Source: a virus. Taken from it: 23,625 nt of DNA. Position 1 is the stretch's first letter, and every line of letters starts with the position of its first letter. The notes below the pieces were generated by a model that was not told the origin of the DNA, made no database searches, and was given only the letters and a program-made list of their open reading frames with translations. The stretch covers positions 2,678 to 26,302 of the IMG/VR virus record IMGVR_UViG_3300001419_001203. One strand, 5' to 3'. The translations under genes and the position numbers were made by a program. This document shows positions 11,965-23,625 of this stretch, one piece after another.

Positions 11965-12120
11965 ATGAGTGAAGGGGATAGCTTCTTTATCCCCTGTCTT
12001 GCCTGCGAAGGCATACAGCAGCACGTCGGAAAACTAGGTAGGGACTTCGGCTACAAACTCCGCACCCGTAGAGTCGTTGAAGACTTTACAAAGGGGTTGC
12101 GGGTCTGGCGTGTGGGTTAG
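11965..12120 (+). CDS. Small conserved-looking phage protein, 51 aa
   Basis: Begins 5 bases after the primase-helicase stop, so it is probably translated by re-initiation; no good ribosome-binding site is visible. It starts MSEGDSFFIPCLACEG and ends with a basic half finishing GLRVWRV. A GDSFF(I/V)P opening and a (G)xRVWR ending are features I recall from short uncharacterised phage proteins, so I call it real despite its size. One CLAC pair is present, too little for a metal site. Its stop (12118-12120) overlaps the stop of the oppositely oriented giant gene by 4 bases. Confidence 0.6.
   Translation: MSEGDSFFIPCLACEGIQQHVGKLGRDFGYKLRTRRVVEDFTKGLRVWRVG
11974..11994. terminator. 7-bp hairpin between converging arms, weak terminator candidate
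   Basis: GGGGATA (11974-11980) and TATCCCC (11988-11994) are perfect inverted copies around a 7-base loop. It lies where either arm would need a stop signal, but neither strand has a T-run after the stem (plus strand continues TGTCTTGCC, minus strand TTCACTCATG). It is also inside codons 4-10 of the small gene, so it may instead affect translation. Confidence 0.25.
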
Positions 12121-15100
12121 AAGTACTGACCTATAACCTTAGCATTCGAGCTCTTCAGTACAACTTCTTCCTGCTCTCGCAGCGCCTTTATCATGTAACG
12201 CTTCTGCTCAGAAGATAGGTTGCTGTCTCGGCTGATGCGGTTAACCTCTTTACGAATACCTGCAATTTGCTTAGCAACGTCACGGAACATCTTGTTGTAC
12301 TCAACCTTAGCAGCGTTGTTGTCCTTCAGCAGATACGGAATTGCTTTCTCAGGCTCGTTAGCCATCAGGCTCAAGTACGACTTGTAAGCTTCATCTGACA
12401 CGCGCTTGTAGTCGTAGAAGATGTCCTTGTAAGCGCCGCCTATCTCTTTATTCAAGAAACGTGACATGCCCGGGAATGAAGACAATGCGTCTTGGATAGA
12501 CTCTTCCGTGCGGCTACCTGCAACACCAGCAACTCTATTACCCGTCCACAATACAGCCGCAGCCGCCGAGCCAAACGTGCCACGCAGCCAGTGGTCTAGC
12601 TTAACTGGAGACATGTTAGTTGCCTCACCCAGAGCTTTACTAAACTCAGATGTGTACTGGTTGTACTGTAGGTATGGCTCCATACCTTCTAGGTACGCAG
12701 GGATTAAGTCGCGCCCAGTAAAGAAGCTCTTGTTAAACGCAACCTCAATTGTAGGCTTGATCAACTGAGGAACTGCTGTCGGAGATAGAACACCCATCAT
12801 GAAGCCATTCTTCAGCGACTCAGTAAATTGTTCTGGAGTGGCAGTAGCTGAACCCGCCGCCAGACGAATCGCATTCTCAACAGCAATCTTAGGCAGTAAG
12901 AACAAGTCAGTACGCATCGGGATGCCGAAACCACCGCCGAAGTGAAGCATGCGATCACGCATCTCTGGTGCTAGCTCTTCGTAGTCATCGTCGCCCATCT
13001 GCATCATTGTGTAGATGGCAGTGGCAGTCATTATCGTGCCAAGATTAGCGTATAGATTCTTACGGCTACGCTGCGCTCGTGGAGAGACACCTTCGCCAGA
13101 TAGAGTTTTAACCTGCACGTTCATCGCCTGTAAGTAAGCGTTGAAGAACGGAATCAGGCGAGCGGCGGCGTGTACGCTACCTGCTGAACCTTTACGGCGG
13201 AAGTTGATGATCTCAAACGAACGCTCAACCGCTTCAGCTTTACTCAAACCTTCTTGCAGAGACAGCTCGTACACAGCCTGACGCACAGCGTTATCTGACG
13301 CCATCGAGAAGTCTTCCATCTTGCGGAGTATCTTCGCACCCCACTTTTGACGGTTCTGCTTCAGATTAGTAGCGTAGCTCTCCATCTCGTCACGCACCAC
13401 AGCGTTACTGTAGTCACGCACGCCAACTGCACCGAAACGACGTAGCTCTTCGTGAGTTGAGCTGGTCTTAGCTACTGTGTTGCTGAATTGTCTGATGATC
13501 TCAAACGGAAGCTTGATAGCCTGACGAACTGGCAGACCAGATGCGAACATAGCGCCAAATGCGTCTTGGGTAAGCTGGCCCAGTGAGAACAATGGGTTGA
13601 GTACAACTGACTTACGTAAGAAGTTAGTAGCAGCTGTGAAGTACTTCAGCATTGGGATGGCAGCAGTCTCTGTACCTTTAAACGCCTCGATGAACAGAGG
13701 GTCAGCCATTGTGTAGGCAACCTTCTTACCATCTTCCCAAACTTTAACTGTGGTCTTTTCGTCGCCTTTAGCTTTAGGCGCAAGCTTCTCAGCCAGACCT
13801 AGTTGAGCTGCTGTGTTGACCATGCTCTGTGCTTGCTTGTTACGCACAGAAACCTCAACCATGAATGACATCATGCGTTCCATGTTGTCGAACACGTTGT
13901 TAACTGGGCTCTGCGAACCAACAACAGGTTTAAACTTAGGGTCAATAACCAAGCCGCTCAGATATTCACGAGGGCCTTTACGATCTTCGATCTGCTGCTC
14001 ACGGTAGAAAGGAACATAGCCTGAGTTATCAAGCCACACTTCAGCAGTGTCAGAATCAACGATGCCAGTGTCCACCATAATCTTTAAGGTGTTACTACGC
14101 ATGCCGTCCCACATCTCTGAGATTTGATCTAGCTCTGGGAACTTAGCGTTGATGTCAGCGTAGTCGTCGATCTGCTCGTCAGTCATGCTAAGGAAGCGAC
14201 TCTCGTCTAGCTTCTCCATCTTCTTAGCACGCTGTCTTTCACCCTTAGTGCCACGCTTCATTCGAGCGATGTCACGCTTACGAGCTTCCTGACGGTTCTT
14301 CAGTCCACGCTCACGCTTAGCGATCAAGTGGTAGTGTGCAATAGTCTCAGCGTCTTGCATTGACAAGCCGTTCTTTTCAGCCATTGTCTGGATGAGACGA
14401 ACCAACGCAGGGTAGTTGTTGGCATCTTCTACGGCTTTCCACTTGTGAATTTCTGTGTCGTACTCAAGGTTGCCGAACTCCATAAACAAGCTAGAGAGTG
14501 CTTCAGCGTGGAACGTTTGCGACATTGAGATATCTAGCATCTCGCCGATAGCCGCTGCTTCATCAATAGGTAGTGTGCGCAGCTCTCGCAAGATAGCGCG
14601 ATTCAGAGCAGCATCAGCAGAGAACATCTTCGTCATGATGGTGTCTACCCAACGGGTAAAGCCATTCGCGTAGTCTTGCTTGGTCTTTGGAACCATCTGA
14701 CCATCGACTTCTTTGTAGCCAATCTGCTGAACAGCAGCCTTAACCGCACCTGTGTCTTTGGTCTCGATCTTCTTGTCGCCGTGCTTATTCAGCAGGTCAT
14801 TTACAGTCTGAGTATTCTCAGCATCTGGCTCGATGTAGAAACTTAGAGGCTTGTCGGTCTCTTCATTGTAGTCAGTTACGTTATCCCGCTCGCCACGAAT
14901 AGCTTCAGCGTAGTCAATCGCCTCTTGCACCGTGCCCATGGCGTCGATAACTTCAACCTCAGTACCGCCTGTACGTAGAACGTTAATCGCTGCACGCAGA
15001 TCAGTAACATCTTCTCCCTCAGCAGCTAGCTCACGCAACGCACGTCGACCATCCGACATGATGCGCATCGCTTTGTTCTCGTCCTTCATCGCTTCCTGAA

Positions 15101-18100
15101 CCTGACGATCAGCTTCATCAAGGTCAATTGTGCGAGTGCCTTCTGCCTCACGCTGTGCGCCAGTCTTCTTCAGGCTGCGGTCTAGCATCAGTGCCATGCT
15201 GTCTACCAAGTTCAGGTAGTCAACGGCGGTAGGAGTAGCGCCTGCCTCACGAGCAACAGCAAGCTGCTTAATATCTAGCTCAGCCTGCTCAACAGCTTCG
15301 GTACCCACTGTATCTTTGAAACGCTGGATAGCTTCATTCATGTCGCCTTTGATGGTTTCAAAGTCAGCACTTCCAACCTGAATCTGACGAAGCAAGTCTT
15401 TAACCAACTCAACTTCTTTCTCAGCTTGGGTCTTAGCTTCTGGGTAGAGCTCAACGCGTGGCATAGCAGGTGACGGCTGTTGTTCAGCCTCACGAGCAGC
15501 TTGTCTGCGTTCTGCTTCCTGTCTGCGGCGTATTAAGTCTTCACCCTGCTCAATGGTGCCAGCCATGTCACGATCTTGGGTGAGAGTGCGGAAGGTGCGA
15601 GCAATAGCTTCTGGGTCTGCCTTCATCAACGCAGCGTTAGACATGTTCTCGATGCTTTCACGCAGCTCAATAACTGCTTCACCGCCCATGTCTTTACCAG
15701 TGCGAGCTTTAATCTGCTCACTAACACCCTTGATTACCTTGCGAACAAGTTCATCACGCAGTGGTGCATCTGTAATCTTGTCAGCCACTAAATCAATTAG
15801 CTGAGATGTAGGCACGTTGAGGTTTACTTCTGGGTTCTCAAGCTGCTTACGCAACGCTGGCATAGCACGACCGGGCAGATTACGACCGGTTTTAGCAACA
15901 AACTGACCAACCTTCTTAACAGCTGCGTCAACATCCTTAGCGGTTTTTTCTACGGCTGGTGCAGGTTCTGGCTCAGCAACTGCTTCTGGTTCTGGTTCTG
16001 GTTCTGGCTCCGCAACTACTTCGGGCTCCGCCTGTATTTCTGGGGCCTGCGCGGTCGTTTGCTCCTGCACTGTCGCGGGTTCAGCTTGTAGCTCGTCAAC
16101 CAATCTCAACGCAAAAGTTTCGTTAGTTAAACCCCAGTCCCTAAGACCAAGAAGATTTAACGAAGAGTTGATCTCGCTAATGCCTTTAGACTTTCCTATA
16201 GGAAGTACGTCTTTCACCCACTGGTATACGTCTTTCTTTGATAGCTCGCCCCTTTCGATAGCATCTTCGGCGGCTTTCATGGAATCATACTTAGATAAAG
16301 TTTTAACCATGCTGCGCGCGCTATTCAAACGCCTAACTGTTTCTGCCCGCTCTTCGCCTTTTCTAAATGGAAGACCAAACGAGTTCATCGTCTGTTTAAC
16401 AGCACGCTCACTGGCGGTTGGAACCTGAGCGACAATCTCTGCAAACGTGCCTTCTAATTTATTTTTAGGCGCAACCGCCGCTGCTGGCTTAGCTTTTGGT
16501 TTAGCAGTTAGCGCGCTGTACTGAGTGATTGCTTCCATCAACGCAGTGTTATTCTCAACGCCCAGCAACTCGGCAACTATCTCAGCCAGTTTGCTCAGTA
16601 CCGATGTATTCTCGTACTTGGTATTAGCTAGGTACGTCTGTAGCTCTGGGCTAGTCATCGCCTCAGAAACAAACTCATAAATGTTAGTTAGCCCGTAGAA
16701 GTCTCTGCCGTCTTTCTTAGCCTGAGTTTTTACAAATTTATACAGCTTGCGCATCTTGTTGACGGCAATCTTCTCTGCTTTAGTTTTAGGGTTCTTAAGC
16801 TTCTGTACGGTTAAGACGTGAACAAGCTCGTGCCCGATGATTCTACCGTCGCCCTTGATCTCACTACGTATAACCAAAGTGTTGCTTGGTGAGTTGTAAT
16901 AGGCTTTCGCATCTTTAGGGTCACGGATGCCAGCTTGTACAGCATCGACATCAATCGACATGTCATCAACTCTGATCTTGGGAGCGTTCTCGCCTTTCAG
17001 CTTAGTCGCAATGTCATTGATCAGTGGGTTGCCCGCATTGGCTAGAATATCCAATGCTGTATTTGTTTCGTCCGGAGTAAGGTCCGCACCTTGCCTGTCG
17101 CCAATCAGATTAGCTAACTCAGGTAAATCCTCAACGTCGCCTAGGTCCTCACGGACCATGTCTTCTTCTAGTGGAGGGGTAGCGAATTCTTCTGGTCCAA
17201 CGTCTCCTCGAGCAGTTCCATCAACGCCTCCCAGTGCTCCCTCTTCAGGTGTTGGAATTCCCCCGGTGGGTACTGGCTGCTGCTCTCCAACCAACTCCAT
17301 GCGCGGCTCACTTGGCTTGCCGTCAGACACACGTCCAGCGCCGGGCTTTCTTCCGACACCAGTTTTAGGTACGGGCGCGAATTCGGGTAATTCATAAACA
17401 CCTTCCTCGTCTGGCAGCTCGTCAATGTCAACTTCTTCGTCTGCCGTAGCCAGAGCCTCAGCGCTAGCTTTAGCATCTTCTTCCGCTTGCTGGTTTAGGG
17501 TTTTAACCAACGTGCTGTTGTTCAACGCAGCGGCTTTGTCGCCGCCTACTTCCTCGTTATACGCTTCAATAAGCTTACGAGCAGCCTCACGACCTTCAAC
17601 TGTGTCTAAGTCTAGCGCATCAAGAGAAGTGCCAAACACGCTGCTAGGCTTCAAGCCAGCTAGCTGAGAATTAAGTTTCGCAGGCAGCATGTCATAGCCA
17701 CTCTGCTTAATTTCCGCACCCTGAAGCTGCTCAATAAAGGTCTCAGCCTTAGACTCAAGGTTCATCGCCGCCTTATTCAGGCCATTAGCTTTTCTGGTGT
17801 CGTCAGTTAGCTCAGCAGCTCTACGATACGCCGCTGCCTGCGCCAATAGGTTAGACGCAGTAGCAAAATCAGTGTTGTCTTTAGCCGCGGATGCTTCTTC
17901 TGGGGTCTTAGCTGCGTCCATTTCCTGACGTGAGCCAGTAACTTGAGCCGCTGTATCAGCCAGAGTCTGATTAATTTCAGCAGTAGTTGCGTCGTCGTTA
18001 GCAATTAGTACCGAGTTGACCACGCCAAGATTACGGGTGTTCGCATCAACTCCGGTGTTGTCAAATCCTACGCCACGAGACTCTGCCAATTCAGCCAGTG

Positions 18101-19154
18101 TTTCAGCTTTTGCCTCTTCAGCGCTTACAGCTGCTTGTTGCTCCGCTGCTCTTTGTTGAGCTAGACGACGCTGCGCCTCGGCTACATTCTGCTGGGCAAT
18201 CTCTTCTGCACCTGCTTGTTGACGGGCACGAACTGTACGAACGCCACCACCTACACCACCAAGAGGAGCAACACCTGCGATAGTGCCGTAAATAGTCTCT
18301 TCGTACTCACGCATCGCATCGTCAGAAGTAAGGTCTAGACCCGCTGCCTGACGCTCAAGGACACCTTGCACCAATTCAACTGGAACTTCCACGCCAGCTG
18401 ACAGCACCATGCCTTTACCGACGCTTTTAGCAACGCCTTCTTCAGCGATACGTTTGATTGTTTCTTTAGCTGTCTCAGCGCCCTCAAAGCCAAATACTTT
18501 GTTGAGCCCGGGAATAAATCTACCAATAACACCCAAACCGAGTCGTTCAGTACCTGACTGCAACGCTGAGTAGCCAAGAGTTTCTAGTTTGCTGTATTCA
18601 ACTGGAGCTTCACCGCGAGCGATACGCGCTTCGTTTTCTTGCTCCTGACGGAGTGTGTTCTCACCGAAGAAATATGTAAGTGCTGGAAGTGCAACTGCGC
18701 CGATAGCTGAGCCGACAGGACCTGCAAATGCGCCTGCTTTAGCACCCGCTAGAGACGCCGCTGCGTACGGAGCTAAACCACCGAGCACCTCTCCAGATTG
18801 CTGCTGAACATAATCTATGCCGGTACCAAGACCGGTGACATCCTCAGAGCTTAAGCGTGGGGCTTGCTCAGTTTCTTCAACTAGCTCTTTGCCGTAGGCT
18901 GCTAAACCTTCTAAGCCGGTAAGCTCACCTGTACCTTTTAGACCAGAGCCAATAGCACGCTGGAAACCGCTGCCAACAGAGCCTAAAAAGCTAACATCTT
19001 CTGGTGGGGGTGGCACAACAGGCTCAGGCATTCTGAGCCCGTAGTACTCGTTGTACTGGCTAGCTAGAAGGTCTTTTGCCTGATCTTCAGTGAGCTCTGT
19101 ATCTGAGTCGAACGAATACCTTTCGCCGTTGATAAAACCGGAATACGTTGGCAT
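12117..19154 (-). CDS. Giant polyvalent virion protein with HExxH metallopeptidase motif and LPD38-like region
   Basis: 2345 residues, the largest gene here. Order from the N-terminus: a Pro run (46-50); a long Gly/Ala hydrophobic stretch (about 123-163) that could insert in a membrane; coiled-coil Gln/Ala-rich segments (about 315-480); an acidic linker (about 570-690); a predicted zinc peptidase with HELVH at 775-779 and a possible third ligand Glu827 or Glu831 in YEFVSEA; a Glu-Pro linker (about 1023-1070); a long helical region; and from about 1480 a region (GFTRWVDTIMTKMF onward) resembling large polyvalent protein domain 38 (LPD38). Polyvalent proteins are thought to be packaged and ejected with phage DNA to act in the new host. 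It follows the transglycosylase gene by 15 bases, like the T7 gp15-gp16 ejection genes. The start has AGGGGC upstream. Domain borders are estimates. Confidence 0.85.
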   Translation of the reverse strand: MPTYSGFINGERYSFDSDTELTEDQAKDLLASQYNEYYGLRMPEPVVPPPPEDVSFLGSVGSGFQRAIGSGLKGTGELTGLEGLAAYGKELVEETEQAPRLSSEDVTGLGTGIDYVQQQSGEVLGGLAPYAAASLAGAKAGAFAGPVGSAIGAVALPALTYFFGENTLRQEQENEARIARGEAPVEYSKLETLGYSALQSGTERLGLGVIGRFIPGLNKVFGFEGAETAKETIKRIAEEGVAKSVGKGMVLSAGVEVPVELVQGVLERQAAGLDLTSDDAMREYEETIYGTIAGVAPLGGVGGGVRTVRARQQAGAEEIAQQNVAEAQRRLAQQRAAEQQAAVSAEEAKAETLAELAESRGVGFDNTGVDANTRNLGVVNSVLIANDDATTAEINQTLADTAAQVTGSRQEMDAAKTPEEASAAKDNTDFATASNLLAQAAAYRRAAELTDDTRKANGLNKAAMNLESKAETFIEQLQGAEIKQSGYDMLPAKLNSQLAGLKPSSVFGTSLDALDLDTVEGREAARKLIEAYNEEVGGDKAAALNNSTLVKTLNQQAEEDAKASAEALATADEEVDIDELPDEEGVYELPEFAPVPKTGVGRKPGAGRVSDGKPSEPRMELVGEQQPVPTGGIPTPEEGALGGVDGTARGDVGPEEFATPPLEEDMVREDLGDVEDLPELANLIGDRQGADLTPDETNTALDILANAGNPLINDIATKLKGENAPKIRVDDMSIDVDAVQAGIRDPKDAKAYYNSPSNTLVIRSEIKGDGRIIGHELVHVLTVQKLKNPKTKAEKIAVNKMRKLYKFVKTQAKKDGRDFYGLTNIYEFVSEAMTSPELQTYLANTKYENTSVLSKLAEIVAELLGVENNTALMEAITQYSALTAKPKAKPAAAVAPKNKLEGTFAEIVAQVPTASERAVKQTMNSFGLPFRKGEERAETVRRLNSARSMVKTLSKYDSMKAAEDAIERGELSKKDVYQWVKDVLPIGKSKGISEINSSLNLLGLRDWGLTNETFALRLVDELQAEPATVQEQTTAQAPEIQAEPEVVAEPEPEPEPEAVAEPEPAPAVEKTAKDVDAAVKKVGQFVAKTGRNLPGRAMPALRKQLENPEVNLNVPTSQLIDLVADKITDAPLRDELVRKVIKGVSEQIKARTGKDMGGEAVIELRESIENMSNAALMKADPEAIARTFRTLTQDRDMAGTIEQGEDLIRRRQEAERRQAAREAEQQPSPAMPRVELYPEAKTQAEKEVELVKDLLRQIQVGSADFETIKGDMNEAIQRFKDTVGTEAVEQAELDIKQLAVAREAGATPTAVDYLNLVDSMALMLDRSLKKTGAQREAEGTRTIDLDEADRQVQEAMKDENKAMRIMSDGRRALRELAAEGEDVTDLRAAINVLRTGGTEVEVIDAMGTVQEAIDYAEAIRGERDNVTDYNEETDKPLSFYIEPDAENTQTVNDLLNKHGDKKIETKDTGAVKAAVQQIGYKEVDGQMVPKTKQDYANGFTRWVDTIMTKMFSADAALNRAILRELRTLPIDEAAAIGEMLDISMSQTFHAEALSSLFMEFGNLEYDTEIHKWKAVEDANNYPALVRLIQTMAEKNGLSMQDAETIAHYHLIAKRERGLKNRQEARKRDIARMKRGTKGERQRAKKMEKLDESRFLSMTDEQIDDYADINAKFPELDQISEMWDGMRSNTLKIMVDTGIVDSDTAEVWLDNSGYVPFYREQQIEDRKGPREYLSGLVIDPKFKPVVGSQSPVNNVFDNMERMMSFMVEVSVRNKQAQSMVNTAAQLGLAEKLAPKAKGDEKTTVKVWEDGKKVAYTMADPLFIEAFKGTETAAIPMLKYFTAATNFLRKSVVLNPLFSLGQLTQDAFGAMFASGLPVRQAIKLPFEIIRQFSNTVAKTSSTHEELRRFGAVGVRDYSNAVVRDEMESYATNLKQNRQKWGAKILRKMEDFSMASDNAVRQAVYELSLQEGLSKAEAVERSFEIINFRRKGSAGSVHAAARLIPFFNAYLQAMNVQVKTLSGEGVSPRAQRSRKNLYANLGTIMTATAIYTMMQMGDDDYEELAPEMRDRMLHFGGGFGIPMRTDLFLLPKIAVENAIRLAAGSATATPEQFTESLKNGFMMGVLSPTAVPQLIKPTIEVAFNKSFFTGRDLIPAYLEGMEPYLQYNQYTSEFSKALGEATNMSPVKLDHWLRGTFGSAAAAVLWTGNRVAGVAGSRTEESIQDALSSFPGMSRFLNKEIGGAYKDIFYDYKRVSDEAYKSYLSLMANEPEKAIPYLLKDNNAAKVEYNKMFRDVAKQIAGIRKEVNRISRDSNLSSEQKRYMIKALREQEEVVLKSSNAKVIGQYF
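15964..16017. repeat. TTCTGG-type tandem repeat encoding a Glu-Pro linker
   Basis: An 18-base unit (GGTTCTGGCTCAGCAACT, 15964-15981) recurs with one change at 16000-16017, with further GGTTCT units between. On the minus strand it encodes EPEPEPEPEAVAEPEP inside the giant protein, a flexible, charged spacer between the peptidase half and the helical/LPD38-like half. Such repeats expand and contract by slippage. Confidence 0.7.
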
Positions 19155-19169: not shown

Positions 19170-21821
19170 TTAGTCTGTAGCTAAGGTAACAGATTCCCTA
19201 GAAATTGGCATCGCTGGTGTTGATAAGCCGCCAGCGTACTTAGCCATATGCTGCACATATGCTTGTTGCATCGCAGCTGCGAGTTCTTCCTGTGTAGGTT
19301 GACGACGCAGTTTGCCAGCTAGCTCGCCGATTAGGCGTACCTTTTCACTCTCAGCCTTCTTAGTCCACTGCTTCTCGCCTTCAATCTGATTCTTCAGCAT
19401 CAGTGCGTAGTTTTTGTACTCGTTAGCAGCAGAAGCTGTGCGGATGTCGCCTTCTTCCTTGAGCAGATCAAGGATTTCTTGCTTTTCATCTTTAACTGCT
19501 TGGGTGTACTGCTTCATACCAGCTAGACCGCCTTCGGCAGCCATACCCAAAAAGTCTTGTTTGCCGCTAGCAGCCATGCCTAGACCCGCTGCGATCATAG
19601 CTTTGTTCAGCTTGTTAGGGTCTTTAGCCTCTTCCATACGCTTACGTAAGTCAGCGAAGTATTCAGCATCTGAGCGCAGACCAGTGATACCTTCACTCTT
19701 AACGTCATCTTTACGGAATCCGCTAACTTTAGCGCCAGTTTTAGCCTGCGTTTCAGTGGCTTTCTTCTTGGCTTCTTCAGATGCCTTATCTTCTGTAGCT
19801 TTTTGTTGCTCGTAGTATGCGGCAACGCCCTCTTGCTTCTCCTTAGCGTCGCGCTTTTCTGCAAAGGTATTAGCATCATCTACCCGCTTCTGAGCCGCTG
19901 CTTCAGATTCAGCTTGAGCCTGCGCGCGTATTGCATCAGTTTGAGCTTGCGTTGCAAAAGGATCAACGTTATCGGTTGGGACCTGTGCGACTATTGGAGC
20001 CGCCGCTGCGCTCTCTTCAGCACGCTTTTTAGCTAGTTCTTCAGCCTTACGAGCGGCTTCTAAACGTGGAGAAACTCGCTTAAACGCAGGGTCACGATCT
20101 GGGTCAGTAGTTGGGAACGGATATCCTACTTCAGGCTGCACGTTCATGTCCTCGCCCGGTGCATCTGGGTCGTAATCCTGCATATTTGCTAGGCGACGGA
20201 TGCCTTCCTGAGAGTCAGCACGTACTTTCTTTTGTGGAGCTGGAGCTTTTTTGTATGCCTCAGCAGGTGGCTCAGTAAAATCTAGCGATGGGTCGTCGGT
20301 GTTTCGAGGTGGCATGTATGGGTTGAAGTTCATGTCTTCACCCGGCGCATCTCGGTCAATAGACATAGGTGCCACAGTCTCACTAGGCGCACCCGCCTCA
20401 GTCATTCCGCCTGAATTAGCTAGAGCAGTCAGCCACTCGTAGAATGACTTCTCATCATCTTTCTTAACTTCTTTACCTTCTTTGAACGACGCTAGAGGCT
20501 CGTAGTTAACCTCTTTATTGAGGTCGTTGAGAATCTTCTGCTCATCAAAATAGTCTTTCAAATCGCGCAGTGAGTAGCCGGTATCTGGGTCAACCCAGTC
20601 TTCGTTGCTTGGGGGTGGGTTACGATCTTCAACAGGCGCTGCCTCAGCACGCTTACTACCCATAAAGAAGTCGCCGATTGAGCCTAACAGCCCAGCCAAG
20701 CCGCCTTCATCTTCACCTTCTTCAATAATTTCACCACTGCGGTCAACAGTAGACGCTAGCGGAACAGGCTTGCGACGCGGCTCATTAGGTAGAGCCTGCA
20801 TGATTCCCTCGCTAGGACGGTTCATCGCCTCTTCTTTAGCATCAATCGCTGCCAACTGGCGCATAACTTCAGCGTGCTCAGAATCAGCAGCGTAGTCTTT
20901 AGATATGCCTGTAGCGTATGGTTCAGTCTCACCACGACGTGGCAGAACAGCGTAGTCACGACCTGATCTTAGCCACTTATCAGCGTTACCCATACCTGCG
21001 TTGTACGCGATAGCAGCAGCTTCAACGTCGCCGTCGTAGCGTTTAGTCAAACCTTGTAGGTACATATCGCCGAACTGAATATTCAACTCTGGCATAGCTA
21101 ACAGACGTGCCGCTTCAGCCTGCGCTTCTGGCGCTGGATACGGACTGCCGTTGCGGTCAACCTTTTTAGTCGCCGCTGCCTCGTCAAATGGCACACCCAT
21201 AGACTTAGCTAGCTTAAAAATAGATGGAGAAATACTGCCGGGTTGAGCAGCTGTAACAGGCATAACCTGCATCATGCCTAACGCTCCGGCTTTGCTCTTC
21301 TTTACACGACCAAGCATGTCAGTGTGACTTTTGCTCGACTCGTAGCCCTTCAGTATCTCTGACAAACGCTGGAAGTCTTCACCAACAATGCCGCCCTCAG
21401 CCATCTTCTTCAGCTTTGTCTTGCTGGTGTTGGCTTTACGTACGTCTGGCTTAGCTGGTGGGCACTCTTGCTTGCCTGTAATTGGGTTCTTGTAGCATGC
21501 GTCCGCAGCGCCAGCTTGAGCAGCGCCTTTCTGGTATGCAGTCATACCGCCTTTTGCAAAACCTACAATGCCGCCAGAGTTCATGCCCATCATCGGAGCT
21601 TGAGGCATAGCAGCGATACCTTGCTGCTGAGGCGGAGCCATAATCTCTTCGGCAACGCTAGTCTCAGGTTGAGGCTGGCTGCCAGCTTCTTCACGCATCT
21701 TCTTACGACGCTGCATTTCACCAAGAACTAAGTACTGTGGAGCTGCACCACCCTGCATAGTTTGATACAGCTGCTGATCAGACAGGTCTTTAAGATCGTT
21801 TTGAAGCTTTACGATATTCAT
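19170..21821 (-). CDS. Virion protein with lytic transglycosylase (SLT) domain
   Basis: 883 residues. The opening (LKDLSDQQLYQTMQGGAAPQ) is helical, then comes a Gly-rich GGIVGFAKGG segment (83-92). An SLT domain follows at about 150-290: likely catalytic Glu161 (GYESS), GALGMMQVMP (179-188) and IAYNAG (271-276) are the family's conserved blocks, apart from extra residues between the Glu and the GALG block. The rest is long, acidic and low in complexity, with coiled coil (about 580-720) and a Lys/Glu-rich end. Such proteins are ejected with the DNA and cut peptidoglycan during entry, as the SLT domain of T7 gp16 does. The motif DAPGEDMN occurs twice (489-498 and 551-560). The ribosome-binding site (GGGCG) is weak. 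It lies 11 bases after the 294-aa gene. Confidence 0.88.
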   Translation of the reverse strand: MNIVKLQNDLKDLSDQQLYQTMQGGAAPQYLVLGEMQRRKKMREEAGSQPQPETSVAEEIMAPPQQQGIAAMPQAPMMGMNSGGIVGFAKGGMTAYQKGAAQAGAADACYKNPITGKQECPPAKPDVRKANTSKTKLKKMAEGGIVGEDFQRLSEILKGYESSKSHTDMLGRVKKSKAGALGMMQVMPVTAAQPGSISPSIFKLAKSMGVPFDEAAATKKVDRNGSPYPAPEAQAEAARLLAMPELNIQFGDMYLQGLTKRYDGDVEAAAIAYNAGMGNADKWLRSGRDYAVLPRRGETEPYATGISKDYAADSEHAEVMRQLAAIDAKEEAMNRPSEGIMQALPNEPRRKPVPLASTVDRSGEIIEEGEDEGGLAGLLGSIGDFFMGSKRAEAAPVEDRNPPPSNEDWVDPDTGYSLRDLKDYFDEQKILNDLNKEVNYEPLASFKEGKEVKKDDEKSFYEWLTALANSGGMTEAGAPSETVAPMSIDRDAPGEDMNFNPYMPPRNTDDPSLDFTEPPAEAYKKAPAPQKKVRADSQEGIRRLANMQDYDPDAPGEDMNVQPEVGYPFPTTDPDRDPAFKRVSPRLEAARKAEELAKKRAEESAAAAPIVAQVPTDNVDPFATQAQTDAIRAQAQAESEAAAQKRVDDANTFAEKRDAKEKQEGVAAYYEQQKATEDKASEEAKKKATETQAKTGAKVSGFRKDDVKSEGITGLRSDAEYFADLRKRMEEAKDPNKLNKAMIAAGLGMAASGKQDFLGMAAEGGLAGMKQYTQAVKDEKQEILDLLKEEGDIRTASAANEYKNYALMLKNQIEGEKQWTKKAESEKVRLIGELAGKLRRQPTQEELAAAMQQAYVQHMAKYAGGLSTPAMPISRESVTLATD
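20142..20171. repeat. Copy 1 of a 30-base imperfect direct repeat (DAPGEDMN motif)
   Basis: Matches 20328-20357 at about 26 of 30 bases. On the minus strand it encodes DPDAPGEDMN (residues 551-560) of the transglycosylase protein. Most differences are at third codon positions, so the peptide is conserved more than the DNA. Confidence 0.6.
20328..20357. repeat. Copy 2 of a 30-base imperfect direct repeat (DAPGEDMN motif)
   Basis: Partner of 20142-20171; it encodes DRDAPGEDMN (residues 489-498) of the transglycosylase protein, in the Pro-rich linker after the SLT domain. The two copies are 62 residues apart. Confidence 0.6.
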
Positions 21822-21832
21822 TGTTTCGCCCG

Positions 21833-22717
21833 TTACTGGTTGAACGCGTTGTAGGCACCAAGACCTGCAATACCCAAACCTGCTAGCTGACCAGCAGTGT
21901 TAGTTGGGGTGTATTGAACCACGCTAGACTGCGTAGGCACGGGGATACCACGGAGTAGTGCGTTGTAGAACGCTAGGTTCTGGCGCTCATTGTCGCGAGC
22001 GTTAAGGAACTCTTCATATTTAAGGTCAAGCTCTTTCTGCGCTTCGGCTTTCTCTTCCGCACCCACAGCATTCTGTAGCTTGAGGCGTGACTCTTGTAGA
22101 GCTTGTTGAGATGTAGCCAGTTTTTCCTGCGCCGCCGCCAGTTGTTGTTGGCTTTGAGCTTGCTGCTGCTTGTTCGCTTCAGCTTGTTGGAACTGCTCAC
22201 GAGATGTGCCGTACGCTTGCTGCAAACCTGTAGCTTGAGCCATAGCCATACGATCTAGCATTTCACTTTCAGCAACTGCTTCTTGAGCACCTTGACGACC
22301 GCCACCAAATGCACCAGCCTGCACAGCTTGAGCTGCGCGACCTGCTTTTTGAGCTTGGTAGTCTTGCTGAATTTGTTTCTTCTGCTCGTTAACCACAGCC
22401 TGCATGTATGGGTCCATGCCTGCTTTTGCAGTCGCAGTATCAAATGCACCCGCTGTATAGCCTGCGCCCGGACCTGCAAGGATGTTACCAGCCGTAGTTA
22501 GACCTGTTGGGGAAGTCATGCCAGCAGCTTCAGTGCGAACGTCCGTCTGCATCTGACTTGGATCGGCAGTTCTGTCGCCTGTAAATGGGGTGTAGGGTTG
22601 AATAGACTCTTTCTGAGCACGAGTCATCATCTCTTCATAGAAGGGCTGTGCGTACTCAGGTAAGTTTGTCTGATAAGAAGTTGAGGTGGTATTACCACCG
22701 CCGCCACCGCCGCTCAT
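21833..22717 (-). CDS. Internal virion protein-like, Gln/Ala-rich coiled coil
   Basis: 294 residues. The start overlaps the previous stop (ATGA) and has a GGAGA ribosome-binding site. It begins with a poly-Gly stretch (MSGGGGGG), followed by NLPEYAQPFYEEMM, then a Gly-rich part with GAFGGGRQG near 136-144. A long Gln/Ala/Glu coiled coil (about 165-250) leads to NLAFYNALLRGIPVP and a hydrophobic Gly-rich C-terminus (AGLGIAGLGAYNAF). This layout recurs in marine podovirus structural proteins and is similar in size and place to T7 gp14 and other DNA-ejection proteins; the hydrophobic end could enter a membrane. It is followed by the transglycosylase protein and the giant protein, as in ejection modules. 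Exact function is inference. Confidence 0.75.
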   Translation of the reverse strand: MSGGGGGGNTTSTSYQTNLPEYAQPFYEEMMTRAQKESIQPYTPFTGDRTADPSQMQTDVRTEAAGMTSPTGLTTAGNILAGPGAGYTAGAFDTATAKAGMDPYMQAVVNEQKKQIQQDYQAQKAGRAAQAVQAGAFGGGRQGAQEAVAESEMLDRMAMAQATGLQQAYGTSREQFQQAEANKQQQAQSQQQLAAAQEKLATSQQALQESRLKLQNAVGAEEKAEAQKELDLKYEEFLNARDNERQNLAFYNALLRGIPVPTQSSVVQYTPTNTAGQLAGLGIAGLGAYNAFNQ

Positions 22718-23124
22718 AAGGCTGTCTCCACAATAGAGTATTTTTCTGCCATACCGTACTTAGATTCGTATAACCGCTTGGTTGACTCTCGTGCAGCGCC
22801 TTCTAATCTAGTTGCGCCGTAGTGTTTCAACAACTGTTTAAAGTTGTTAATTGTGTCAGAGTCGCTGATTAAGCGACCACCCATAGCAGTTACAAACGCG
22901 ACTCTATCGTTCGGTCTGTTTTCAAAGTTTACTGTGCAAGCGCCTTTTATATCGCCAGATTCGTCAACAGCCACGAATAGATTCCATGTGCCATTGGCTA
23001 GGTATACTTTAGCATGTTCTGCGTTGTAGTCACCTTTTGAGAATTCTAACGCTTTCTCAAGCCATTTTTCTACTAAATGCCAGACTTGCTGGACATTTTC
23101 TTGTAGTACGGGCTGCACAATCAT
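22714..23124 (-). CDS. GNAT-like acetyltransferase-fold protein in the virion operon
   Basis: 136 residues, ATGA overlaps at both ends, so tightly coupled to its neighbours; no own ribosome-binding site is evident. The pattern fits a GNAT fold: an N-terminal helix (VWHLVEKWLEKAL), a strand pair with NLFVAVDESGDIKGACTV (the beta turn), a FVTAMGG strand and a last helix-strand (GAARESTKRLYESKYG, then KYSIVET). The usual acetyl-CoA loop R/Q-x-x-G-x-G/A is not clearly present, so it may not be a catalyst. GNAT-like proteins at this place are seen among tail and ejection genes of marine podoviruses. An unrelated fold is possible. Confidence 0.6.
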   Translation of the reverse strand: MIVQPVLQENVQQVWHLVEKWLEKALEFSKGDYNAEHAKVYLANGTWNLFVAVDESGDIKGACTVNFENRPNDRVAFVTAMGGRLISDSDTINNFKQLLKHYGATRLEGAARESTKRLYESKYGMAEKYSIVETAL

Positions 23125-23625
23125 GCTGGTAAGTATTTGTTCGCGTCAATCTGCGGCGCTTGCTCTTCGGTGCCAGTACGAGCCTTACGGATTCGATCTA
23201 GCATTTCATCTAAACGTACAGCACCGTCATCAGATGAGCCGTTGCCCAAATGACTGACTACATCGGCAGGGATTACATACTCACCGGTGCTCAATGCTGC
23301 TGGCTGCGACCCATCAATTTCTGCTGGCACGGAGTCGCTCATGCCATCACCCTTTAAACTTGCGATTCCGCCTTCTAAGTAACCACCAGCTGCAAACATA
23401 ACCTGTTTGCCGCCGTGCTCTTGCATCAGCGCATCGTCCATTGAGTTGCCTGTACCTTGCCAGTCCATAGGCGCAGCGCCGTTAAGATCAGACTGGTACT
23501 GCTGAATCATGCCTTTCAAACGGCGTAGCTCTGGCAGTGAGAGTTTATCCAGCTCTTCGTCAAAATTAGGTTTTGGCACCGCTTCTGAGTAGACTGAACG
23601 ACCTTCTTTAAAACCTTGAGGGCCA
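23121..23625 (-). CDS. Virion structural protein, C-terminal part (5' end outside window)
   Basis: The frame stays open to the window edge, so this is the last 167 residues of a longer protein; a GTG at 23579 is not needed as start because the reading continues upstream (GPQGFKEGRSVYSEAVPKPN). It contains GGYLEGGIASLKGDGMSD, then SVPAEIDGSQPAALSTGEY, VIPADVVSHLGNG and a final helix (LDEMLDRIRKARTG). The string 'SD(S)(I/V)PA...LS.GE(Y/F)V(I/V)(P/N)ADVV' is common near the ends of phage tail tape-measure and related structural proteins. The stop overlaps the next start (ATGA). Confidence 0.65.
   Translation of the reverse strand, partial: GPQGFKEGRSVYSEAVPKPNFDEELDKLSLPELRRLKGMIQQYQSDLNGAAPMDWQGTGNSMDDALMQEHGGKQVMFAAGGYLEGGIASLKGDGMSDSVPAEIDGSQPAALSTGEYVIPADVVSHLGNGSSDDGAVRLDEMLDRIRKARTGTEEQAPQIDANKYLPA

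What the first reader, a model, noticed from the sequence alone, without database searches (positions are those of the whole stretch)
12117..19154. A 2345-aa, probably ejected protein carries an HExxH metallopeptidase signature
Seen: HELVH at residues 775-779 with GDGRIIG before it and YEFVSEAM 48 residues later, the spacing of a gluzincin-like zinc site. Known: polyvalent phage proteins combine peptidase and other effector domains with LPD modules and are thought to be delivered with the DNA. Inference: this peptidase acts on host proteins (a defence factor, for example) or matures the virion. Nothing shows its substrate.
Basis: partly seen in the sequence, partly recalled or inferred. Interest (0 to 1): 0.68.

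Follow-up and report, generated by a model that had tools for sequence, protein, structure and literature searches.

The report
Metallopeptidase domain in phage ejection protein
A giant phage protein, probably fired into the bacterium with the viral DNA, carries a well-conserved zinc-peptidase domain that many distantly related phages also place in their ejected proteins, sometimes mislabelled as a cell-wall enzyme; what it cuts is unknown.

Summary
The ORF is real (12117-19154, minus strand, 2345 aa). HELVH at 775-779 is its only HExxH (0.005 expected from composition). It lies in a ~190-residue domain found in 65 further viral contigs and 144 phage records. Across ~20-29% identity the only invariant residues are H775, E776, H779 and E827. 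Residues on one side of the site were tested on relatives retrieved through the other side: E827 42/42, HExxH 22/22. AlphaFold gives a confident zincin layout. Foldseek's best hits for a compact relative are M34-type gluzincins.

The same clade occurs in N4-like virion RNA polymerases (the HExxH 'C1' domain), crAss-like and Cellulophaga structural proteins (one detected by MS) and the large internal core proteins of KP34/phiM1/phiKMV-like phages. So it is a new member of a known kind: the zincin domain of polyvalent/ejected proteins (Iyer 2017). The most useful extra is a re-annotation: the 'endolysin/exotransglycosylase' domain named in KP34-like and PhiM1 ejection proteins is this zincin.

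Ejection is likely, not shown, for this phage. Substrate is unknown. Virion maturation is disfavoured, because relatives are packaged intact. A host defence target has no evidence. Action after ejection, perhaps on the ejection machinery itself, is my preferred inference.

The parts
12117..19154 (-). Giant LPD38 polyvalent / ejection protein, 2345 aa
   Evidence: ATG-initiated ORF without internal stop; Pfam LPD38; PHROG matches to large phage proteins
16485..17057 (-). Zincin (gluzincin-type) metallopeptidase domain, residues 700-890
   Evidence: Profile of 12 phage blocks matches residues 700-885; AlphaFold model of 690-900 has pLDDT 88.1, pTM 0.80
16818..16832 (-). HELVH, residues 775-779: zinc ligands H775 and H779, general base E776
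   Evidence: Invariant in all rows reaching these columns (77/77, near-duplicates included; 41/41 in the non-redundant set)
16674..16676 (-). E827 of N-x-x-E-F, candidate third zinc ligand
   Evidence: Invariant; 42/42 in relatives found only through the HELVH pattern
17085..17492 (-). Acidic / Pro-rich linker before the peptidase domain, residues 555-690
   Evidence: Composition; sequence
15891..16103 (-). Glu-Pro-rich linker, residues 1018-1088
   Evidence: Low-complexity stretch AEPEVVAEPEPEPEPEAVAEPEPAP
12174..14117 (-). Conserved C-terminal core, residues 1680-2327
   Evidence: Shared with Pag-Yong1, PTXU04, CF418P1, phiARM81mr, L045/L046 and L077
12513..12992 (-). LPD38, residues 2055-2214
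   Evidence: Pfam PF18857, E = 2.4e-26
18666..18788 (-). Gly/Ala-rich hydrophobic stretch, residues 123-163, possible membrane segment
   Evidence: Kyte-Doolittle maximum 1.46 over 21 residues from residue 143; inference only
19170..21821 (-). 883-aa protein with SLT transglycosylase domain, second ejection-module protein
   Evidence: Pfam SLT E = 1.4e-13
21833..22717 (-). 294-aa DNA ejection protein (PHROG family)
   Evidence: phrog_4287 'DNA ejection protein', E = 3.1e-13

Best explanation
Residues ~700-890 form a catalytically competent zinc metallopeptidase domain: H775, H779 and E827 bind zinc, and E776 activates water. It is carried by the largest of three proteins of a short-tailed-phage ejection module (294 aa ejection protein, 883 aa transglycosylase protein, 2345 aa LPD38 protein). 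The giant protein is packaged intact, leaves the capsid ahead of or with the DNA, and the peptidase works after ejection. The most likely substrate is the ejection machinery itself (its own linkers or a partner), freeing or dismantling parts once the channel has formed. Shown here: the conserved site, the predicted zincin-type layout, the clade, and the gene context. Inferred: zinc binding, activity, packaging in this phage, timing and substrate.
For: Only invariant residues are H, E, H, E across 41 non-redundant sequences, tested reciprocally: E827 42/42, HExxH 22/22. Conservation of the general base E776 argues for catalysis rather than a purely structural zinc. AlphaFold: helix, three strands, HExxH helix, Glu helix; pLDDT 95-98 around the site; a relative gives pLDDT 93.1. 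Its ten best PDB fold hits are all zincins. Relatives: MS-detected virion protein phi14:2 gp076; solved phage ejection/core proteins 23sg, 8vb2 and 9sfn and N4 vRNAP by profile, E 4.5e-26 to 7e-4; 31 of 41 blocks match PHROG 'virion RNA polymerase'. Neighbour genes in relatives include virion structural, DNA-ejection and T7-gp14-like proteins. The domain is flanked by long linkers. In N4 a 23-residue linker joins the RNA polymerase to the CTD, which begins with the HExxH C1 domain and inhibits the polymerase (PMC12633501). The module is kept in phages of Bacteroidota, Proteobacteria and Cyanobacteria, which suits a substrate common to the ejection process.
Against: No activity, zinc content or cleavage product is known for this protein or, in the papers read here, for any relative. 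Recombinant N4 vRNAP was imaged full length with the zincin-like C1 domain ordered (PMC12633501), so it does not cut itself constitutively. Related LPD38 proteins (CF418P1, PTXU04, phiARM81mr) lack the domain, so it is dispensable for ejection in those phages, which also suits a host-directed accessory role. No proteomics exist for this phage. I could not measure distances in the model. Foldseek E-values against PDB are weak (best 0.06), and the phage ejection structures were not among the 50 fold hits listed.
Confidence: 0.55

Rival explanations
1. Ejected effector: the peptidase cleaves a host protein (defence factor, envelope protein or regulator) after entry.
For: Effector-type domains share some relatives' polypeptides: ART-PolyVal in 2 and Macro in 1 of 21. 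The domain is modular and absent from some LPD38 relatives. Iyer 2017 lists host targeting as one possibility (PMC5512222).
Against: No target is known. The clade spans phages of very different hosts with all four residues invariant, which is unusual for a host-specific anti-defence factor. No linked defence or counter-defence gene was identified.
Confidence: 0.25
2. Virion maturation: the domain processes the giant protein or other virion proteins before or during packaging.
For: Phage P1 DdrB, a polyvalent protein with a zincin domain, is processed before packaging (PMC5512222).
Against: N4 vRNAP, which carries the related domain, is packaged unprocessed (PMC5512222). phiM1 gp48 was modelled in the capsid with this region present (PMC11440229).
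Confidence: 0.1
3. Wall or envelope penetration: the domain cuts peptidoglycan peptides or envelope proteins to help the channel cross, alongside the transglycosylase next door.
For: The adjacent gene has an SLT domain. The closest viral fold match is named 'LT_GEWL domain containing protein', and At2 has an SLT-like neighbour. KP34- and PhiM1-like ejection proteins carry the domain and have been labelled endolysin-like.
Against: The wall-enzyme neighbour is not general: of 70 neighbouring ORFs in relatives, no Pfam SLT and only one PHROG endolysin match; none of the 20 relatives' giant ORFs scanned had SLT. The fold matches are to proteinases, not to known peptidoglycan endopeptidases.
Confidence: 0.12
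4. Inactive remnant or structural zinc site.
For: No activity reported; the N4 MPTase/C1 domain sits in a region needed for encapsidation (PMC5512222).
Against: The general base E776 is as invariant as the ligands although the rest of the domain has drifted to ~20-29% identity; a purely structural site would not need it.
Confidence: 0.08

Closest known systems
Zincin-like MPTase / 'C1' domain of coliphage N4 virion RNA polymerase (PMC5512222; PMC8472413; PMC12633501)
   Same: Same sequence clade by profile (31 of 41 blocks match the virion RNA polymerase PHROG); HELVHAST and a downstream EF glutamate; inside a giant ejected virion protein
   Different: The window protein has no detectable RNA polymerase; its C-terminal part is an LPD38 core
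KP34-like (Drulisvirus) / Pectobacterium phage PhiM1 gp48 / phiKMV-like large internal core proteins (23sg, 8vb2, 9sfn)
   Same: Same zincin block with all four residues, in the largest ejectosome protein
   Different: 1230-1340 aa, no LPD38; in PhiM1 the region is published as endolysin/exotransglycosidase-like (PMC11440229)
Cellulophaga phage phi14:2 gp076 and crAss-like phage structural proteins
   Same: Best single match in annotated phages (2e-12); virion protein by MS/MS according to the record
   Different: Different flanking domains; Bacteroidota hosts
LPD38 large polyvalent proteins (Pag-Yong1, PTXU04, CF418P1, phiARM81mr)
   Same: Same ~650-residue C-terminal core
   Different: Only Pag-Yong1 also has the zincin; the other three have no HExxH at all
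M34-type gluzincin fold (PPEP-3, lethal-factor catalytic domain) and minigluzincins (selecase, projannalysin)
   Same: Best solved-fold matches of the compact relative, Foldseek probability up to 0.66 (PPEP-3) and 0.97 (lethal factor); HExxH plus Glu
   Different: Fold-level likeness only; no implication for target or toxicity

Membership tests
Gluzincin-type zincin peptidase | HExxH motif with a downstream Glu third ligand, conserved | tested here: met
   H775, E776, H779 and E827 are the only invariant columns
Gluzincin-type zincin peptidase | Zincin core: helix, three-stranded sheet, HExxH helix, Glu helix | tested here: met
   DSSP of AlphaFold models; top fold hits of the compact relative are zincins. 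Ligand distances could not be measured
Gluzincin-type zincin peptidase | Binds zinc and cleaves peptide bonds | not testable with these tools
   Needs purified protein
N4 vRNAP MPTase/C1 clade of polyvalent proteins | Profile-level homology to the N4 domain with the same residues | tested here: met
   N4 chains at E 1e-5 to 7e-4; PHROG 2206 matches 31/41 blocks, though not the window's own block
Phage-type polyvalent protein (Iyer 2017) | Large protein with LPD module(s) and enzymatic domains | tested here: met
   2345 aa, LPD38 E = 2.4e-26 plus the zincin domain; no second enzymatic domain was detected
Podovirus ejection (internal virion) protein | Gene in the ejection module; relatives in virions | tested here: met
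   Neighbours are an SLT protein and phrog_4287 DNA ejection protein; relatives are virion proteins
Podovirus ejection (internal virion) protein | This protein is packaged and ejected | not testable with these tools
   No proteomics for this metagenomic phage
Lytic transglycosylase / endolysin-type ejection protein (T7 gp16-like) | SLT or other wall-lytic domain in the same polypeptide | tested here: not met
   No SLT or lysozyme Pfam match in the 2345-aa protein, nor in the Drulisvirus and P. putida phage core proteins scanned
Pfam MPTase-PolyVal (PF18818) and other curated zincin families | Match above the curated cut-off | tested here: not met
   The window block matches no Pfam zincin family; only weak SprT-like (2 of 41) or MPTase-PolyVal (2 of 12) matches in relatives

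The most novel reading that the evidence does not exclude
One catalytically conserved gluzincin clade is a hidden, shared component of ejection machines in otherwise unrelated phages (N4-like, crAss-like, KP34/phiM1/phiKMV-like, LPD38). Its job is to cut ejectosome linkers after delivery, for instance freeing the N4 virion RNA polymerase from its inhibitory C-terminal domain. The 'endolysin domain' annotations of KP34-like and PhiM1 core proteins are wrong.
Probability: 0.2. Interest if true: 0.75.

Novelty: new member of a known kind. Interest (0 to 1): 0.42.

Why it matters
The zincin domain of polyvalent proteins was described in 2017 and in N4 vRNAP, but its function is untested in the papers found here. 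Recognising that the same invariant site sits in the core proteins of KP34/phiM1/phiKMV-like phages, which have solved structures, makes the question testable in cultured phages. It also corrects widespread 'endolysin' and 'exotransglycosylase' labels. If the peptidase works on the ejection machinery, it would add a proteolytic step to genome delivery.

Tried and rejected
Direct viral-contig scans with the whole protein and with the single domain found no relative. Alignments A1 and A2 were too diverged to seed a scan. A3, three closer blocks, worked. Single-sequence PDB searches were uninformative. A wall-enzyme partnership as a general rule was rejected, because neighbours of relatives rarely carry SLT or endolysin domains. 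GDGRIIG as a signature was rejected as not conserved. E831 as third ligand was rejected as not invariant. A virion RNA polymerase in the window protein was considered: no Pfam or PHROG support. Foldseek against PDB with the window domain gave no match below E = 0.1; the compact relative gave clear but weak zincin matches. Literature searches in the held library found no activity measurement for this clade.

Full report
WHAT IS THERE. The ORF 12117-19154 lies on the minus strand and encodes 2345 aa without interruption. It contains one HExxH, HELVH at 775-779; composition predicts 0.005 such motifs in a protein this poor in histidine. The window is part of a 26.3-kb IMG/VR virus record with no completeness estimate given, possibly a fragment. 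Replication genes run on the plus strand (DNA polymerase A, PD-(D/E)XK nuclease, SNF2-type helicase, primase-helicase-like protein). They converge on a minus-strand module of a 152-aa protein, a 136-aa protein, a 294-aa DNA ejection protein (phrog_4287), an 883-aa SLT protein and the giant protein.

DOMAINS. Pfam sees only LPD38 (2055-2214, E 2.4e-26). PHROGs sees a larger C-terminal core (about 1637-2334) and a weak match over the HExxH region. The core occurs in phages PTXU04, Pag-Yong1, CF418P1 and phiARM81mr. The HExxH domain has its own distribution, and long low-complexity linkers flank it at about 555-690 and 1018-1088.

THE ZINC SITE. tblastn with residues 690-900 finds relatives in 144 phage records at E <= 0.1. 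Twelve blocks (the window plus KP34-like, P. putida, N4-like, crAss-like, Flavobacterium and Cellulophaga phages and a rodent-gut virus) share only four invariant residues: H775, E776, H779 and E827. A viral-contig scan brought 65 more loci, all with the block inside large ORFs of 984-4706 aa. Because each locus was found through one of two short patterns, the other half of the site is an independent test. E827 is conserved in 42 of 42 rows found through HELVH; HExxH in 22 of 22 rows that reach it among those found through YG-x-x-N-x-x-E, where the middle letters vary (HEAVH, HEMLH, HEVMH, HELSH and others). The one gapped locus, L068, also carries HELAH and a downstream NIDEF. The H-to-E spacing runs from 24 to 97 residues, median 52. 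The non-redundant 41-sequence alignment again leaves exactly these four residues invariant.

FOLD. AlphaFold on residues 690-900 gives pLDDT 88.1 and pTM 0.80, with about 95-98 around the site: helix, three strands, HExxH helix 770-787, Glu helix 825-834. That is the core described for polyvalent-protein zincins in PMC5512222. A compact relative gives pLDDT 93.1 and pTM 0.89, and its ten best PDB matches are all zincins: M34-type (lethal-factor catalytic fold, PPEP-3) and minigluzincins, probability up to 0.97 but E no better than 0.06. The window's own model gives only weak PDB matches. Against predicted viral proteins it gives 20 matches at E <= 1e-3, all phage proteins, many of them core, polyvalent or structural ones, including phi14:2 gp076 and internal core proteins of Pseudomonas and Ralstonia phages. 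I could not measure ligand distances.

WHERE RELATIVES SIT. phi14:2 gp076 is a virion protein by MS/MS according to its record. The profile of the domain matches solved phage proteins: 9sfn internal virion protein (4.5e-26), 23sg gp10 (8.8e-18), 8vb2 tetrameric ejection protein of PhiM1 (3.9e-14) and N4 virion RNA polymerase (6e-5 to 7e-4). 23sg matches the Drulisvirus core protein over its full length. 9sfn has the 1337-aa length of phiKMV gp37 (PMC8954989); that identity is my inference. 31 of 41 blocks match the virion RNA polymerase PHROG. Neighbours of the giant ORFs include virion structural, DNA ejection and T7-gp14-like proteins.

WHAT WAS KNOWN. Iyer et al. 2017 (PMC5512222) described zincin MPTases as the commonest domain of polyvalent proteins and recognised one in N4 vRNAP at 2130-2448. 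They proposed self-processing or host targeting, and noted that N4 vRNAP is packaged unprocessed. PMC8472413 repeats this for Cbunavirus, and PMC12633501 notes the HExxH in N4 C1. So the window protein is a new member of a known kind. What I did not find in the held literature is recognition of the same domain in KP34/phiM1/phiKMV-like core proteins. PhiM1 gp48 Asp268-Asp528 is published as endolysin/exotransglycosidase-like (PMC11440229), yet the zincin match at 377-514 with all four residues lies inside it. The two core proteins of this type that I scanned, one of them labelled 'endolysin', have no Pfam wall-lytic domain.

HOW IT PROBABLY WORKS. Shown: conserved residues, predicted fold, clade, gene context. 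Inferred: zinc, activity, packaging, ejection, substrate. Maturation before packaging is disfavoured by intact relatives. A wall role is weakened because SLT or endolysin neighbours are rare in relatives. Breadth across host phyla with invariant catalysis suits a substrate common to ejection; N4's linker between the polymerase and its inhibitory CTD (PMC12633501) is an attractive but untested example. Against this, recombinant N4 vRNAP is intact, and some LPD38 relatives lack the module, which leaves a host-directed role open. Nothing here points to a defence factor as the substrate.

Noticed in passing
L003, L006, L012; PDB 8vb2 residues ~377-514: 'Internal virion protein with endolysin domain' and 'peptidoglycan lytic exotransglycosylase' labels in KP34-like and P. 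putida phages, and the endolysin-like region of PhiM1 gp48, coincide with a zincin block; no wall-lytic Pfam domain was found in the two such proteins scanned.
   Followed up: partly
L082:802-1971 (G000:C1, just outside the window): A DUF2201_N putative metallopeptidase plus DUF2201 VWA-like protein (HENFH), preceded by an incomplete ORF that might be a MoxR-type ATPase (no Pfam match), near the replication genes.
   Followed up: partly
L080 (Planktothrix phage Pag-Yong1), residues 559 and 1717 of the giant ORF: Two separate HExxH sites in one LPD38 polyvalent protein (HEGYH and HEAVH); only the second belongs to this clade.
   Followed up: no
23121-23579 (-): 152-aa protein with SDSVPAEIDGSQPAALSTGEYVIPADVV, weakly like tape-measure protein segments (PHROG E 0.016), in an apparently short-tailed phage.
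   Followed up: no
22714-23124 (-): 136-aa protein that reads like a small acetyltransferase, next to the ejection-module genes; no Pfam match.
   Followed up: no
L010 and L011 (crAss-like phages cr115_1 and cr4_1): In-frame TAG codons inside the zincin-bearing structural genes, consistent with TAG reassignment; read as Gln here.
   Followed up: partly
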